From a virus, in IMG/VR virus record IMGVR_UViG_3300030090_002335, positions 1-30,252 of that record: DNA of 30,252 bases. One strand, 5' to 3'. Shown here in pieces: positions 3,201-29,580 of this stretch. A program made the translations under genes and the position numbers. Numbering within the stretch: position 1 is the first letter of the stretch; each line of letters opens with the position of its first letter. The notes under the pieces are model-generated. The model was not told the DNA's origin and made no database searches. It was given only the letters and a program-made list of their open reading frames with translations.

Positions 3201-6200
3201 TCATCATCTGGTAAACCGCTAACAACCTGTCTAGTTCTCATACCATCTATAAATATCTTAGCACCATGATTACCACGTTCTATTCCATTTTCGTTTGTTG
3301 AAGCTTCGTTTTTAAACCATGACCAAAATTTATATGTTATATTGGTTCTATTCATTACATTACCAGGTTCATCTTGACCACCACCAAACGGTATATCAGT
3401 ACCTAAAACATCTGTCAAGTTACCTTGAGCATCTCTTTCTTCATGCGTACAACCTAAAGCCAAAAACTCAGCGTCATAAGGATGGCAACCAACACCACTA
3501 ACCAAATTACCACCACCAGAATTACCACAAGCTTCATAATTTACATCACCTGTTCCAGCGTGTTCACCAGCCCAACCACCAAAAGAACCCCAAATGTTAA
3601 TGCCAATCGAGTTATCTAAATTAGCAACATTTAAATTACCAATGTTACCATTTGTACCTTGAAAAGCGGCTTGACTATCTATAGGTTGTATAACAGTATT
3701 ACCATTAATATCTGTAAAAGAAAAATCTGTAAATACACCATAAGTAACTAAATCATCTGTTTCTGTACCGTTAACGGTTAAATCTGGTTGATTAAACCAC
3801 TTGTAACCTCTTCTTGGGCCAGGATTATCATTAAACATTACACCTGGATTATACTCTTGATTATCTATATAACAAACTAAGTACGTGGTGTCATCAACAT
3901 AATATTGACTAGCATCTGTAACGCCTAACACTTTATTAGCTAAAACATCGTCTCTTTCTATTTTTACAAAAAACTTACCTTCAAACTCTGGTTGACTTTT
4001 TGTTACTAGTTCTCTAAACTCCATAAACCAAGTTATGTTTGGTAGAGGAGTAGCACCAAATTGTTCAACTAGTTGATCAAACATAGCTGTAGCGTTAAAT
4101 TCTTTGTCCCACCTTAAAACACCAGTTCCATCAAGCTCGGGATCATCAGGGTCTTCAAACTTATGTTGATACGTAACTAATCTCCATGGACATATAGAAC
4201 CTACAGTTGTTGTATCACTAACAGCTTTTAATCTTATTTGTAAATCACCTTGAGTTTCATAGCCATCTAAAAAACCACCCCATTTAGTATTTGTTATTGC
4301 TATTTCTGTAGATGTCATTAGTCTATCAGGAGCTTGTGTAAGAGGATTTACTGTGCTCCACATGTGGTCTGAGTACATAACGTCAGTCCAACCACTTTCA
4401 CCACCAGTTTCAAAAGCACCTAGTAAAAGTTGACCCATGTCTCTTTTTTGTTGTTTTATAAAATCAGGAGCTTCATTATCTATAGCAATAATTTTATATC
4501 TAGCAGCTTCTGCCACAGCGTTATCTGTTCCGTGTTCGTTTTTTAATATTAGATAAGTATCTTCGTCAATTTTGTTTCTATCCGCTGATGGAAAAGATAT
4601 CCATATATTACCATCTTCTGCATTGTACCATCTATCCATAACTAGATTATAGTACTCATTTGAGGTTTCTTTTATGTAGTATTTAGTGTAGTGAATCCAA
4701 TCATCTGGTATACCTTCATCTGTTTCACCCCAAAACTGTTGTAACTCTAATTTGTTTTTAAATTTTGAAAATTGTTTTGGCACTTTTATTGTACCATCAA
4801 ATACAGAGTATCTATCACCAGGTTCTTTTTGTTGTATATATGTAGCTGCAAATACTGGAGTTTCTCTACCATACTTGTCACCAAATACCATACCTACTTT
4901 ATAATCTCTTAATGATTTAATTGATTTATCAGGTGTAGTAGGTGATGGTGTTCTATATGTTTTTAAATGTTGTTTTATACTAGGCTTATTGTTGACGTCC
5001 CAACCCTGAACAACGTTTGCGTAAACTAATCTATTAGCTGCAATTTCTTGAGCCAACGCTGTTCTTGGTACATTATCCCATGCTCTTAACGTTTGATTGT
5101 TTGGTAGAGTTTTGTGTATCATTTCTGATGTTATATTTAACTCTCCAAAAGCTAATGTAGGAAACTCGTCGTTTATAGAAAAATTATCCCACTCTGGATC
5201 TATACCTCTAGTTATTGTTTTAACAACATAAACATTTGGACCTTCAGTAGTTTTATACAGTATATCTATAGCGGTAATATCAACCTGCCTGTCTCTTTGA
5301 GGTGGTATAAAGTCTTTTATAATTAAACTTCTAACAGTATTTGCCATACCTAGATTATAACCTTTTTTATAGTCATAATCAAATTGTCCAGGTAAAAATG
5401 CTATTTCAGAAAATGGACCAAAATTTGAATACTCACCATCTTCATACTTATACCTTAAACCAAACCTACCAAACTTTAACTCAAACAATGCATCTGACTG
5501 TTCTAGTGTTGTTGTCCAATAACCAGAGTTTGTTATAGCTGTTGAATATAGTAGGTCTTTATTTTTAGTTAAAACTCTAAATGTTATAACTTTGTAATCA
5601 CCTGAAAAGTCTATTGTTTCTACTTTAGCTGTTAACCAACTTTCAGTATCTGTTGTTTCTTCATTAAACTCTATTATATCGTTTATCTCATATTGTATAT
5701 TATTAAATATAGCAGGATCATTTGATGGACTAGAGGTTCCAGCTATATCACCTTCAGTTGGAATTGTAAAAGTATTACCAGGTTGTATGTCTTCATCTTC
5801 ACCTTCATAGTTAGCAAAGTTATAAAATACATTTGTTTGCGTTACAATACCTTCTCTCTCTGATTGACTCATTTCTACAACAGGTGCAGATAAAGGTGCT
5901 TTACGAATAACTGTTACGTGCTTTTTTTCTATATCACTATTAACGGTGGTTGATAGTGATTGTTCTATTTGATTATCATATGCGTCTAATAGTATTTCAG
6001 AATCTGTTGGTAACTCTAGTTTAACTTTAGTATGAGTTAAGAAATCTATTGAACCATCTTTACACTTTTTTATATTTATTCTTTTTGGCTCGTTGTAATT
6101 ATCAGTCCAAAATAAAAGATCATCAATAATGTTTATACCTGTTACTATTCTGTCTTGTTTAAAGTTTAAAGCTCTTCTTTCTTCTGGTATAAAAAATGTT

Positions 6201-20450: not shown

Positions 20451-20485
20451 AATAGTAATTACACGTTTTTACTAAATAGTAATTA
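20451..20485. repeat. Direct repeat of 11 bp, AATAGTAATTA
   Basis: Identical 11-bp copies occupy 20451-20461 and 20475-20485, about two helical turns apart; the second overlaps the groES stop codon. They could be a paired protein-binding site or chance in AT-rich DNA. Confidence 0.45.
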
Positions 20486-20740
20486 TTCTACTATAACTAT
20501 ATCTCTAGCCCTTATAACTCGATACATATCATCATTATAAGCTATATCATGACCAGCAATACCATCATAATAAACACTATCACCTTTTTTAACAATAGGT
20601 ACATCATTACCTACAGATATAATGTTTGCTTTTCTATATCTATTAGTCTCATCTGTTTTGTCAGTTAGTATTAAGCCACCAACCTTCTTTGGACCTTCTT
20701 TTTTCTTATCTACTATTACGTAATCGTTAACTGCTTGCAT
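20483..20740 (-). CDS. groES: Co-chaperonin GroES
   Basis: An 85-residue protein, slightly shorter than the usual 95-100, that would form the lid of the chaperonin. The order of elements is canonical: an N-terminal strand NDYVIVDKK, a mobile-loop region PKKVGGLILTDKTDE with the hydrophobic Leu-Ile-Leu triplet that docks on GroEL (about residues 23-25), then ANIISVGND, VKKGDSVYYDGIAGHD and a final YRVIRARDIVIVE. All key features of the family are present, so it should be functional. It begins inside groEL (14-base overlap), so translation of the two is probably coupled. Phage co-chaperonins such as T4 gp31 allow folding of capsid protein. Confidence 0.9.
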   Translation of the reverse strand: MQAVNDYVIVDKKKEGPKKVGGLILTDKTDETNRYRKANIISVGNDVPIVKKGDSVYYDGIAGHDIAYNDDMYRVIRARDIVIVE

Positions 20741-22292
20741 TTTCTACTCTTATATTTGAAATTACACAATCTGCTGACATCACAGTTAAAGCTACACTCA
20801 CAGCATTTTTAAGTGCAGATTTAGTTACAAGTACTGGATCGATAATACCTTCGTCAATCATTTTAACAAACTTACCGTTTACAACATTGCAGCCATAACC
20901 CTCTTTCATGTTAAGATTAAGTTTTAATCCGGCATTGTCCATTATAGTTTCAAATGGTGCAGATAAAGCATTTAACAATACCTTACCAGCATCGCTGGTC
21001 GAAATTTTTTGAGAAGCATTTAACAGTGCTATACCACCTCCTGGTACAATACCTTCTTGCAACGCAGCTTTAGTAGCGTATATAGCATCTTCAACTCGAT
21101 CTTTCTTTTCTTTAAGTTCTACTTTAGAATTAGCACCAACCTTTATAACACCAACACTACCAGATAACATAGCTAGTCTATCTTCTAGTTTCTTTTTAAT
21201 AAAACCGTTTTGCTCTTCAGCTAAATGTTTATTTAACTCATCTATTCTATCTTCAATACCATCGGTCATACCTTCTAGTGTTAATATGGTTTGTTTATCA
21301 TCTGTTACAGAAAACTCAGCTTCACCTAAATGTTCAGGCTTCATTAAATCTAAATCATCACCAAGCTCTTCATTTAATACTGTAGCACCTGTTAGTATGG
21401 CTAAATCTTCTGTAGCGTCCTTTTTAGTAGGACCAAAGCCAGGTAAATCAATAATGTTTACTTTAATATTACCTTTAACCTTGTTCATCATCAGCGCCGA
21501 CTTTACCTGCTGTGCTACTGGTGCTACAATTAGTAAAGATCGGTTTGATTTTATAACGTGTTCTAATATCTTTTGTATTTTACGTACGTTAGGTATTTCA
21601 GATGAACATACAAGTATTAATGGTTTATCTAGCTCACATGATTGTTTTTCAGTATTAGTTACAAAATGAGGGGATGTTAAACCACATTCTACTTTAACAC
21701 CATCTACGATGTCAACATATGTTTCATCTGATTCACTTTCTTCCATTAATACTACACCTTGATCACCAACCTTGTCATAAGCTTCAGCTATAATAGCACC
21801 CAGCTCTTCATCGTTGTTACAAGATATAGCACTAACAGATTTTAGCATATCACCTTTAACTTCAGTAGCTATATTATTTAAATAGCTAATGACACTATCT
21901 AGTGTTTCGTTTACTCCATCTTTTATTTCTCTGATTGTAAGACCATCTGCGACCGCAGTGTCTACTTGTTTGATTATTGCTTCAGCTAATACTGTAGCAG
22001 TTGTTGTACCATCACCAGCATCTTTAACTGTATTTCTGGCAGCTTCTTTTATGAGTGTTGCACCCATGTTTTCAACCGGATCATATAAGACTACGCTTTC
22101 CGCTACGGTTACACCATCTTTTGTTATGACCGGCTTGCCACGTCCGTCTTCGTAGATAACACATTTACCTGACGCTCCTAATGTGGATTTAACGGCTTGG
22201 GCTAGTTTATTTACTCCTGTGACAACCTTATCTTTAGCTTCACTACCAAAGTTAAGATCCTTCACCAATTCACTTGGTAAGTTATATTCCAT
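20727..22292 (-). CDS. groEL: Chaperonin GroEL, phage-encoded
   Basis: A 521-residue protein collinear with bacterial GroEL (about 548). The ATP site is intact: KSTLGASGKCVI (35-46), the loop DAGDGTTTATV (91-101) and the hydrolysis Asp in RVEDAIYATK (Asp 402, equivalent to E. coli Asp 398), plus PGGG (417-420) and EGIIDP (481-486). The apical domain (about 180-370) is complete. The C-terminus ends without the Gly-Gly-Met tail of bacterial GroEL, and TLGPKG is altered to TLGASG. It is transcribed with groES downstream, the reverse of the usual bacterial groES-groEL order. It probably folds capsid or other large virion proteins. The lack of the tail and the divergence argue against recent acquisition from the host. 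Confidence 0.93.
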   Translation of the reverse strand: MEYNLPSELVKDLNFGSEAKDKVVTGVNKLAQAVKSTLGASGKCVIYEDGRGKPVITKDGVTVAESVVLYDPVENMGATLIKEAARNTVKDAGDGTTTATVLAEAIIKQVDTAVADGLTIREIKDGVNETLDSVISYLNNIATEVKGDMLKSVSAISCNNDEELGAIIAEAYDKVGDQGVVLMEESESDETYVDIVDGVKVECGLTSPHFVTNTEKQSCELDKPLILVCSSEIPNVRKIQKILEHVIKSNRSLLIVAPVAQQVKSALMMNKVKGNIKVNIIDLPGFGPTKKDATEDLAILTGATVLNEELGDDLDLMKPEHLGEAEFSVTDDKQTILTLEGMTDGIEDRIDELNKHLAEEQNGFIKKKLEDRLAMLSGSVGVIKVGANSKVELKEKKDRVEDAIYATKAALQEGIVPGGGIALLNASQKISTSDAGKVLLNALSAPFETIMDNAGLKLNLNMKEGYGCNVVNGKFVKMIDEGIIDPVLVTKSALKNAVSVALTVMSADCVISNIRVENASS

Positions 22293-28294: not shown

Positions 28295-28690
28295 ATGAAT
28301 AAAGAAGACTTAACAAGAGAAATAGCTAAATTACAATTAGCTTTAGAATCTCACGAAGAGCAAGTAAAAGATTTAAATCACGATTTGAAGATCGCTACAC
28401 AAAGATTAGAGGATTGTGATAAGCCAAAGTTAACTAGAAAACAATTCGATGAGTTGCATAAAGTTATAGAAAACAGTGTTGATAACTTTGACTTTAATAA
28501 CGTTGAAAACTATAATGCTGAAATGGGCATGGAATATGACAATAAAGTATACTTAGATTGCATAGAATTTGAAAATCATGCTGATTTATATGAGCAAATT
28601 ATAAGAGATGTTGAAGATTTATTTGGCGTAGCTGATGAAAGTGACGACAACGACGAAGACCCGTACGCTAATCCCGTACACCCTGAGTAG
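28295..28690 (+). CDS. Coiled-coil acidic protein
   Basis: A 131-residue acidic protein. The start at the ATG after the motif is preferred; an upstream TTG at 28262 would lie inside the motif spacer. Residues 1-45 form a heptad-like coiled coil (IAKLQLALESHEEQVKDLNH), followed by KPKLTRKQFDELHKVIE and a C-terminal stretch rich in Asp, Glu and Asn ending NPVHPE. No enzyme motif is visible. A scaffold-like or host-binding role is possible. The structured RNA begins about 28 bases after its stop. Confidence 0.6.
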   Translation: MNKEDLTREIAKLQLALESHEEQVKDLNHDLKIATQRLEDCDKPKLTRKQFDELHKVIENSVDNFDFNNVENYNAEMGMEYDNKVYLDCIEFENHADLYEQIIRDVEDLFGVADESDDNDEDPYANPVHPE

Positions 28691-28717
28691 TTGCCAAGCG
28701 AATAATCAGTTAAAATT

Positions 28718-28862
28718 GCAGGCGAAGGATGTGTAAACTCGACGTATTATCCGAGTTATCTTACCTTCTTGCTGCGTGAGCGTTGGTTGTAATCACCGTG
28801 CCCTGTTAGTATTAACGTGGCAAAAATAATGCGCTCAAAACTGCGGGTGAAGGGCGCGTTTT
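28718..28862 (+). ncRNA. Three tandem stem-loops, 5' domain of a large RNA
   Basis: Three hairpins follow the preceding stop at 28690: a long one at 28718-28775 (arms GCAG/CTGC, GAAGG/CCTTC, AACTCG/CGAGTT); one at 28777-28837 (TGAGCG/CGCTCA with an inner GTTA/TAAC); and one at 28837-28862 (AAAAC-t-GCG with CGC-GTTTT). They share no coding potential and look GC-richer than the genes around them. They probably form the 5' domain of the same RNA as the next entry. Confidence 0.6.
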
Positions 28863-28869
28863 AGACGCT

Positions 28870-29158
28870 GCAGCTCGCGAGTGGTGCAAACAGTACAAGG
28901 TACTAGCCACTCAAAACCGTGAACTAGGTGGTTCAATGTAGGATAAAGCGATTAAAGCAAACTCTAAGGTTCGCGATGGAATAGTAGTTAATTCATGCTA
29001 TAGAAGTTGAAGGGATAAGGTTTTATGGGACCACACCTACGGTTCACAACAGCTTGAAATGGATTAATTCAATAATGCGTTTAAGTGTATACTTTTACAA
29101 GTAATTTATTGAATTATTTACCTGACGAGGTGGGAGGTTCGATTCCTCCCCGAGCTGC
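28870..29158 (+). ncRNA. Large structured RNA with oversized cloverleaf and tRNA-like T-arm
   Basis: The ends pair over 8 bp (28870-28877 with 29151-29158). Inside, in order, are a D-arm-position hairpin (28879-28884 with 28907-28912, inner 28892-28904), a long anticodon-position helix (28919-28930 with 29034-29047, two-base bulge) around about 100 nt, an 11-bp hairpin (29065-29075 with 29106-29116), a 4-bp variable-like hairpin ACCT-gacg-AGGT (29120-29131), and a canonical T-arm (GGGAGG, loop TTCGATT, CCTCCC; 29132-29150). This resembles a cloverleaf with inflated arms. It lacks the conserved tmRNA 5' segment, an ALAA-type tag, and group I or RNase P cores. It is not CCA-encoded. No known RNA class fits. 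Confidence 0.65.
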
Positions 29159-29176
29159 TAACCAATAATATGTAAT

Positions 29177-29308
29177 ATGACTAATTTAAGAGATGAAATA
29201 GCTTACCTAGAATATGGTAAGAAATACGCTGAACTATCAGCTGGAGAACAAAGAGAAGTAGAATATGAGTATAATGATTTAGTAGATCTGCTTGGAGAAG
29301 AAATGTAG
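29177..29308 (+). CDS. 43-residue acidic protein
   Basis: MTNLRDEIAYLEYGKKYAEL opens a helical, acidic peptide (AGEQREVEYEYNDLVDLLGE). It follows the structured RNA by 18 bases, has an A/T-rich leader but no copy of the early motif, and ends 9 bases before the next copy. The lack of a motif suggests it is translated from the same transcript as the RNA. Confidence 0.5.
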   Translation: MTNLRDEIAYLEYGKKYAELSAGEQREVEYEYNDLVDLLGEEM

Positions 29309-29346: not shown

Positions 29347-29580
29347 ATGAAAACAATATACGATAAACTCAAACCAGATATTCTGGCGAGTATAAAAGCA
29401 GATGAAAAAACATATCCATACACAACTAGAGCTCTTATCAAAGAACTTAAAGACTGTTTAGACTGGTCACAGCTGTCAATAGCCGCGTGTAGAACAATAA
29501 TAATACACTCACATGTAAAACTTATCGACTCGGTTGATATTCAAGATTTATGGTGGGGTGATAAATTTTTAATAAAATAA
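29347..29580 (+). CDS. Small early protein of unknown function
   Basis: A 77-residue protein starting two bases after motif copy 8. It is largely helical (YDKLKPDILASIKADEKTYP, RALIKELKDCLDWSQLSIAA) with a Trp-Trp near the C-terminus (DLWWGDKFLIK). No family is recognised. The position directly behind a clear motif copy makes the start reliable. Confidence 0.55.
   Translation: MKTIYDKLKPDILASIKADEKTYPYTTRALIKELKDCLDWSQLSIAACRTIIIHSHVKLIDSVDIQDLWWGDKFLIK

What the first reader, a model, noticed from the sequence alone, without database searches (positions are those of the whole stretch)
28718..29158. About 440-nt structured RNA ending in a tRNA-like T-arm, unlike known classes
Between two early genes lies a stretch with no coding potential but dense helices. 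Its 3' half closes with an 8-bp stem directly stacked on a canonical T-arm (loop TTCGATT), with a variable-like hairpin next to it. The D-arm and anticodon positions are filled by a 34-nt hairpin and a long helix around about 100 nt: a cloverleaf with inflated arms. An alternative local hairpin (28921-28924 with 28931-28934) competes with the long helix, so the RNA could switch conformations. Large ornate phage RNAs such as GOLLD and ROOL are known to occur near tRNAs, but I cannot match this sequence to either, nor to tmRNA.
Basis: partly seen in the sequence, partly recalled or inferred. Interest (0 to 1): 0.85.

Follow-up and report, generated by a model that had tools for sequence, protein, structure and literature searches.

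The report
Modular phage RNA with tRNA mimic
A crAss-like bacterial virus and at least 15 relatives carry, between two small early genes, a string of interchangeable folded RNA modules that always includes a tRNA look-alike without an anticodon; it matches no known RNA family and looks like a new class of viral RNA whose job is not yet known.

Summary
In detail: 28690-29160 is a non-coding, structured RNA locus with a T-arm near its 3' end and no Rfam or ARAGORN match. The real acceptor stem is local: 29050-29056 with 29151-29157.

The locus is a row of separate modules. The tRNA-like module (29050-29157) has a 7-bp acceptor, a 3-bp D-stem, an invariant GG, a 10-nt stub where the anticodon arm should be, and a 6-bp T-stem with UUCGANU loop. 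99% of pairs are kept; 11 of 19 change on both sides. Its 3' end has the same format as the phages' own tRNA genes. Upstream lies a pseudoknot module (28919-29047; 15 of 17 pairs covary) that also occurs detached from the tRNA mimic. Further modules are shuffled between phages at about 98% identity while the adjacent gene is only 67% identical. Distant relatives have an empty site.

It is neither tRNA, tmRNA, GOLLD nor ROOL. Most likely host tRNA-maturation enzymes process it, releasing exchangeable RNA effectors. That step is inferred.

The parts
28690..29160 (+). whole modular RNA locus between the 131-aa ORF and the next small ORF
   Evidence: no ORF of its own; homologues at the same place in relatives, empty site in L021, L023, L024
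28718..28775 (+). module B: GCAGGCGAAGG ... CCUUCUUGCUGC, closing helix with variable inner arm
   Evidence: recurs in L005, L007, L014, L018, L094, L099-L102; 4 of 10 pairs change on both sides, all cells paired
28778..28836 (+). module C: GAGCG/CGCUC arm with GGUUGNAAUCACC
   Evidence: recurs in L004, L005, L014 and diverged in L018; closing pairs invariant, so covariation untested
   Evidence: sequence and local fold only
   Evidence: recurs in L094, L099, L100, L103 with GAGUAG/CUACUC; four other phages have a different module D here
28919..29047 (+). module K, pseudoknot: P1 28919-28925/29041-29047, P2 28928-28932/29030-29034, pseudoknot 28938-28942/29036-29040, conserved AUAAAGCG 28943-28950, variable inner arm 28951-29029
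   Evidence: 94.8% of cells paired, 15 of 17 pairs with changes on both sides, 0/500 shuffles as high; occurs detached from the tRNA mimic in L094, L099, L101, L102
29050..29157 (+). tRNA-like module: acceptor 29050-29056/29151-29157, D-stem 29057-29059/29117-29119, GG 29061-29062, inserted arm 29063-29116, stub hairpin 29121-29130, T-arm 29132-29150 (loop 29138-29144)
   Evidence: 16 homologues, 99.0% of cells paired, 11 of 19 pairs with changes on both sides
29158..29160 (+). C-U-A after the acceptor, at the place of CCA; C-(U/A)-A in 15 of 16 homologues
   Evidence: the phages' tRNA genes carry a non-CCA sequence beginning with C at the same place
28295..28690 (+). upstream 131-aa ORF, conserved neighbour
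29347..29580 (+). downstream 77-aa ORF, conserved neighbour (directly adjacent to the 131-aa ORF in relatives with the empty site)

Best explanation
The locus makes a string of self-folding RNA modules inside an early-region transcript of a crAss-like phage. The constant module is a tRNA mimic: acceptor and T-arm stacked into 13 bp, a D/T-loop elbow (GG with UUC), a stub instead of the anticodon arm, and a D-loop used as a landing site for extra arms. Having no anticodon arm, it cannot decode (shown from anatomy). It is probably recognised by host tRNA-maturation enzymes: RNase P would cut at about 29049/29050 and the tRNA 3' pathway would trim to C74 and add the rest of CCA. This would give defined, exonuclease-resistant ends to the mimic and to the pseudoknot module directly before it (inferred). 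The other modules are interchangeable effectors acting in the early phase; their targets are unknown, and host or rival-phage RNA-binding or RNA-cleaving proteins are the likeliest (inferred from cassette exchange).
For: Covariation in every tRNA-like helix: 99% paired, 11/19 pairs with double changes, slid controls 34-50%. The acceptor sequence changes freely (CAGCUUG, CAGCACG, UAGCACG, UAGUAUG, CAGUUUG) while shape, GG and T-loop stay, as expected for recognition by shape and not by one synthetase. Exactly 13 nt separate the T-loop from a C-(U/A)-A, the same 3' format as the phages' tRNA genes. Pseudoknot module K is supported by 15/17 covarying pairs, lies 1-4 nt from the mimic and also occurs alone. 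Modules are exchanged: window and L006 share 129 nt at 97.7% while the adjacent gene is 67% identical; L001 and L004 share 138 nt at 98.6% against 67.5%. The mimic is the one module present in all 16 loci, and module A was never found in IMG/VR without it.
Against: No expression or processing data. Position 1 is C or U and -1 usually A, not the usual bacterial RNase P site. The enzyme step rests on anatomy alone. Most homologues were found with patterns from the mimic itself, so its constancy is partly by selection; the synteny search and module A search reduce this bias but do not remove it.
Confidence: 0.5

Rival explanations
1. Decoy or sponge: the mimic itself is the effector. It titrates a host factor that binds the tRNA elbow or acceptor (for example a tRNA-cleaving abortive-infection nuclease or a tRNA-sensing defence), and the other modules are decoys for other host RNAs or nucleases.
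For: Shape is kept while acceptor sequence drifts; the anticodon arm is gone; modules are swapped like counter-defence genes; position among small early genes.
Against: No match of any module to a known host RNA, CRISPR repeat or antitoxin RNA; no defence target identified.
Confidence: 0.25
2. Structural RNA of the GOLLD/ROOL kind: modules are arms of one large RNA that assembles into an RNA-only particle.
For: Similar size, phage origin, pseudoknots, a conserved 3' part and a variable 5' part, as described for GOLLD (PMC12286853).
Against: No Rfam hit. Module number and order vary (3 to about 6), modules close on themselves and occur in different orders and detached, unlike a particle with fixed geometry.
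Confidence: 0.12
3. A degenerate or intron-bearing tRNA, or a relic of a tRNA used as insertion site.
For: tRNA-like anatomy; a related genome, MW202828, has an odd tRNA with an inflated anticodon loop.
Against: Strong purifying selection on helices with many compensatory changes. The stub UGACGA is invariant, and L002 lacks any insert yet still has no anticodon arm. No integrase context was sought or seen, and the acceptor is phage-specific.
Confidence: 0.05
4. A tmRNA or split tmRNA variant.
For: T-arm and weak D-arm; the distant homologue in L019 has G3:U70 and A73 in its acceptor, the alanine identity of tmRNA. Rfam tmRNA gives 9.9 bits over the T-arm only.
Against: No tag reading frame; L002 has only 11 nt between the GG and the stub hairpin; no G3:U70 in the 16 loci; far below Rfam cut-off.
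Confidence: 0.03

Closest known systems
canonical tRNA (Rfam RF00005)
   Same: acceptor/T-arm stack, T-loop UUCRANU, GG in a D-like loop, 13 nt from T-loop to the 3' C
   Different: no anticodon arm (10-nt stub), 3-bp D-stem with no spacer after the acceptor, D-loop inserts of up to about 80 nt, 7+6 bp stack, not detected by Rfam or ARAGORN
tmRNA (RF00023)
   Same: tRNA-like domain with reduced D-arm and inserted sequence; pseudoknots nearby
   Different: no tag frame, no G3:U70 in the main family, pseudoknot lies outside the acceptor stem
GOLLD and ROOL large phage RNAs
   Same: long non-coding phage RNA, pseudoknots, conserved 3' and variable 5' part (PMC12286853)
   Different: no covariance-model match; modules are exchangeable and occur separately
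viral tRNA mimics: plant-virus 3' tRNA-like structures (reviewed in PMC5723415), gammaherpesvirus tRNA-miRNA transcripts (from memory)
   Same: virus-encoded tRNA mimic that need not decode; herpesvirus ones pair a mimic with extra hairpins
   Different: DNA phage of bacteria, different topology, no sequence relation

Membership tests
tRNA | acceptor stem and T-arm with canonical T-loop | tested here: met
   covariation in 16 sequences
tRNA | anticodon arm of 5 bp with 7-nt loop | tested here: not met
   3-bp stub with loop GACG in all 16; L002 has no other arm
tRNA | recognised by tRNA models | tested here: not met
   ARAGORN and Rfam negative at the locus
tRNA | CCA end and aminoacylation | not testable with these tools
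   only the encoded C-W-A format, shared with the phage tRNA genes, is seen
tmRNA | tag reading frame inside the tRNA-like domain | tested here: not met
   11 nt between GG and stub in L002
tmRNA | G3:U70 alanine identity pair | tested here: not met
   acceptor pairs; present only in the distant L019 homologue
tmRNA | Rfam RF00023 score above gathering | tested here: not met
   best 9.9 bits against 47
GOLLD / ROOL | match to the Rfam covariance models | tested here: not met
   no hit in window or homologues
GOLLD / ROOL | RNA-only oligomeric cage | not testable with these tools
   needs native gel or cryo-EM

The most novel reading that the evidence does not exclude
A new class of phage counter-defence or host-takeover locus built from exchangeable structured RNA cassettes instead of genes, anchored by an anticodon-less tRNA mimic that borrows the host tRNA-maturation enzymes.
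Probability: 0.35. Interest if true: 0.88.

Novelty: new variant of a known kind. Interest (0 to 1): 0.74.

Why it matters
Phage genomes are usually read as proteins and tRNAs. Here a whole locus appears to be a mosaic of RNA domains recombined between phages while the neighbouring gene diverges, with a tRNA mimic as its constant part. If the modules are effectors, RNA cassettes would be a route of phage-host conflict parallel to counter-defence proteins. The mimic also asks a direct question: which host enzyme needs only the tRNA elbow and acceptor? The alignments give sharp, testable predictions for ends and mutants.

Tried and rejected
Rfam at gathering and at relaxed thresholds in window and homologues: only real tRNAs, one tmRNA elsewhere, and weak chance hits. 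Group I / group II intron: I noted superficial similarity of CCUACGGUUC to group II domain V; dropped because the helix encloses a variable domain and the covariation gives a pseudoknot. Permuted tmRNA: rejected, both acceptor strands lie within 61-142 nt in the expected order. Pairing UAGGU/ACCUA in module K: rejected because L018 and L100 keep GUAGG/CCUAC-type pairs with double changes instead. BLASTN against named phages: none. Search of 257 Gb of bacterial and archaeal genomes with a tRNA-mimic pattern: none. Two pattern hits in coding DNA (L008-L011) were chance. A covariance model was not built because the D-loop inserts vary from 11 to about 90 nt and the pseudoknot cannot be modelled.

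Full report
Setting. The window belongs to a crAss-like phage: terminase phrog_6681 (E 4e-180), portal and capsid families. The nearest named genome by terminase is MW202828.1 (64% identity); the nearest cultured ones are Flavobacterium 'elemo' phages (46%). The host is therefore probably a flavobacterium (inference). The locus lies among small plus-strand genes, divergent from the structural genes.

Checking the observation. Between the stop at 28690 and the 43-aa ORF at 29177 there is no plausible gene. Rfam and ARAGORN find nothing. Comparative evidence was therefore needed.

Homologues. Pattern searches with the T-arm, with the pseudoknot region and with the neighbouring 142-aa protein gave 15 homologous loci besides the window: L001, L002, L004, L005, L006, L007, L012, L014, L018, L094, L099, L100, L101, L102, L103. 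The window is absent from these as a separate record. L105 is near-identical to L100, and several other loci are repeats of the same contigs. Where the neighbours could be traced, the RNA usually lies between the 131-aa and 77-aa genes or directly upstream of the latter. In the more distant L021, L023 and L024 the two genes are adjacent, with about 10-25 nt between them: an empty site. All six contigs with at least 60% identity in the 142-aa neighbour (L013-L018) carry the tRNA mimic.

The tRNA mimic. In all 16 loci the strand after the T-arm pairs with a strand 61-142 nt upstream: 29050-29056 in the window. With the variable insert left out, 16 rows align without gaps. In the named structure 99.0% of cells pair, 11 of 19 pairs change on both sides, and covariation score is 0.506 against 0.223 +/- 0.021 in shuffles and at most 0.108 in slid controls. 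Every helix has double changes: acceptor (4 of 7 pairs), D-stem (2 of 3), stub hairpin (2 of 3) and T-stem (3 of 6). L002 shows the minimal form: acceptor, D-arm AAU-UGGUACUA-AUU, one nucleotide, stub CCU-GACG-AGG, one nucleotide, T-arm, acceptor. In the others, arms of very different sequence are inserted in the D-loop after the invariant GG. The stub's UGACG is invariant. There is thus no anticodon arm. An alternative wording (D-arm absent, inserts in the anticodon position, stub as variable arm) does not change this, since L002 has no insert.

3' end. In all 16, exactly 13 nt separate the T-loop from C-(U/A)-A (one G). In real tRNAs 5 + 7 + 1 = 13 nt precede CCA. The phages' own tRNA genes (Arg, Asp, Met, Gln) also carry C followed by non-C at that place. 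The same rule holds for the distant forms in L019 and L022. So the mimic has the 3' format of a phage tRNA gene. That it is matured the same way is inference.

The pseudoknot module K. Window, L018, L100, L102 and the detached copies in L094, L099, L101 and L102 define P1, P2 and a pseudoknot (GUAGG/CCUAC; GUGAG/CUCAC in L018; GCAGG/CCUGC in L094) with a conserved AURAARC strand. With variable parts left out, 94.8% of cells pair, 15 of 17 pairs change on both sides, and no shuffle of 500 reaches the covariation score. The detached copies, separated from the mimic by other sequence or a gene, show that K and the mimic are independent modules.

The other modules. At least eight more recurring modules (A, B, C, D, D', E, F, G, with H, I, J as smaller ones) appear in different combinations and orders. 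Module B has 4 covarying pairs of 10, on five distinct sequences only. Some modules occur twice in one locus (H in L006), and an arm found in D-loops (J) recurs upstream in L019. Exchange is recent: window and L006 share 129 nt at 97.7% while their 131-aa genes are 67.1% identical; L001 and L004 share 138 nt at 98.6% against 67.5%.

Mechanism. Shown: independent conserved modules, an anticodon-less tRNA mimic, cassette exchange, an empty ancestral-type site. Inferred: co-transcription with early genes; recognition of the mimic by RNase P and the tRNA 3' pathway; release of K with a short protected tail; effector roles of modules. A decoy role of the mimic is the main rival and could hold at the same time. 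I put about one half on processing as its main role.

Novelty. Large phage RNAs (GOLLD, ROOL; PMC12286853) and viral tRNA mimics (PMC5723415) are known kinds. I found no described family with this anatomy in Rfam or in the held literature; the library is not complete. I therefore file it as a new variant of a known kind, with an appreciable chance that it is a new class.

Caveats. Alignments for pair counts were trimmed by hand of variable inserts and aligned from structure-aware extraction, which favours the structure; the size of the covariation and the slid controls make chance very unlikely. Homologues come mostly from related metagenome samples. No expression data exist here.

Noticed in passing
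L106 (MW202828.1) 523-630 and 637-697: Two odd tRNAs missed by ARAGORN: one leucine-like with a roughly 46-nt insert in the anticodon arm (47.3 bits) and a 61-nt one (37.2 bits).
   Followed up: partly
L019 and L020, 3913-4370: A more distant phage has a different RNA of about 450 nt after the homologue of the 131-aa gene, ending in a tRNA-like module with G3:U70 and A73 as in tmRNA, but no Rfam hit.
   Followed up: partly
L022 3783-3892: A tRNA-like module with acceptor UAACUAG/CUAGUUA and CUA end lies upstream of the 69-aa gene homologue, a different place in the genome.
   Followed up: partly
window 25453, 25589, 26287, 26691, 29318: Repeated leader element AAATACGAATAAAGTAAGATAATA before plus-strand genes, probably an early promoter or translation leader.
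   Followed up: no
L095 2745 and 3945-4302: A 412-kb viral contig with a tmRNA gene (tag AENVDSPAYEYAIAA) and, 1.2 kb before it, another T-arm with a tRNA-like acceptor (UGCUUG/CAAGCA) not called by ARAGORN.
   Followed up: no
L094 5026 and L006 481, L012 386: Module G (GGUCGCUGG...CCAGU) may itself contain a pseudoknot.
   Followed up: no
window 20483-22292: Phage-encoded GroEL and GroES-like genes (521 aa and 85 aa), also in the relatives.
   Followed up: no
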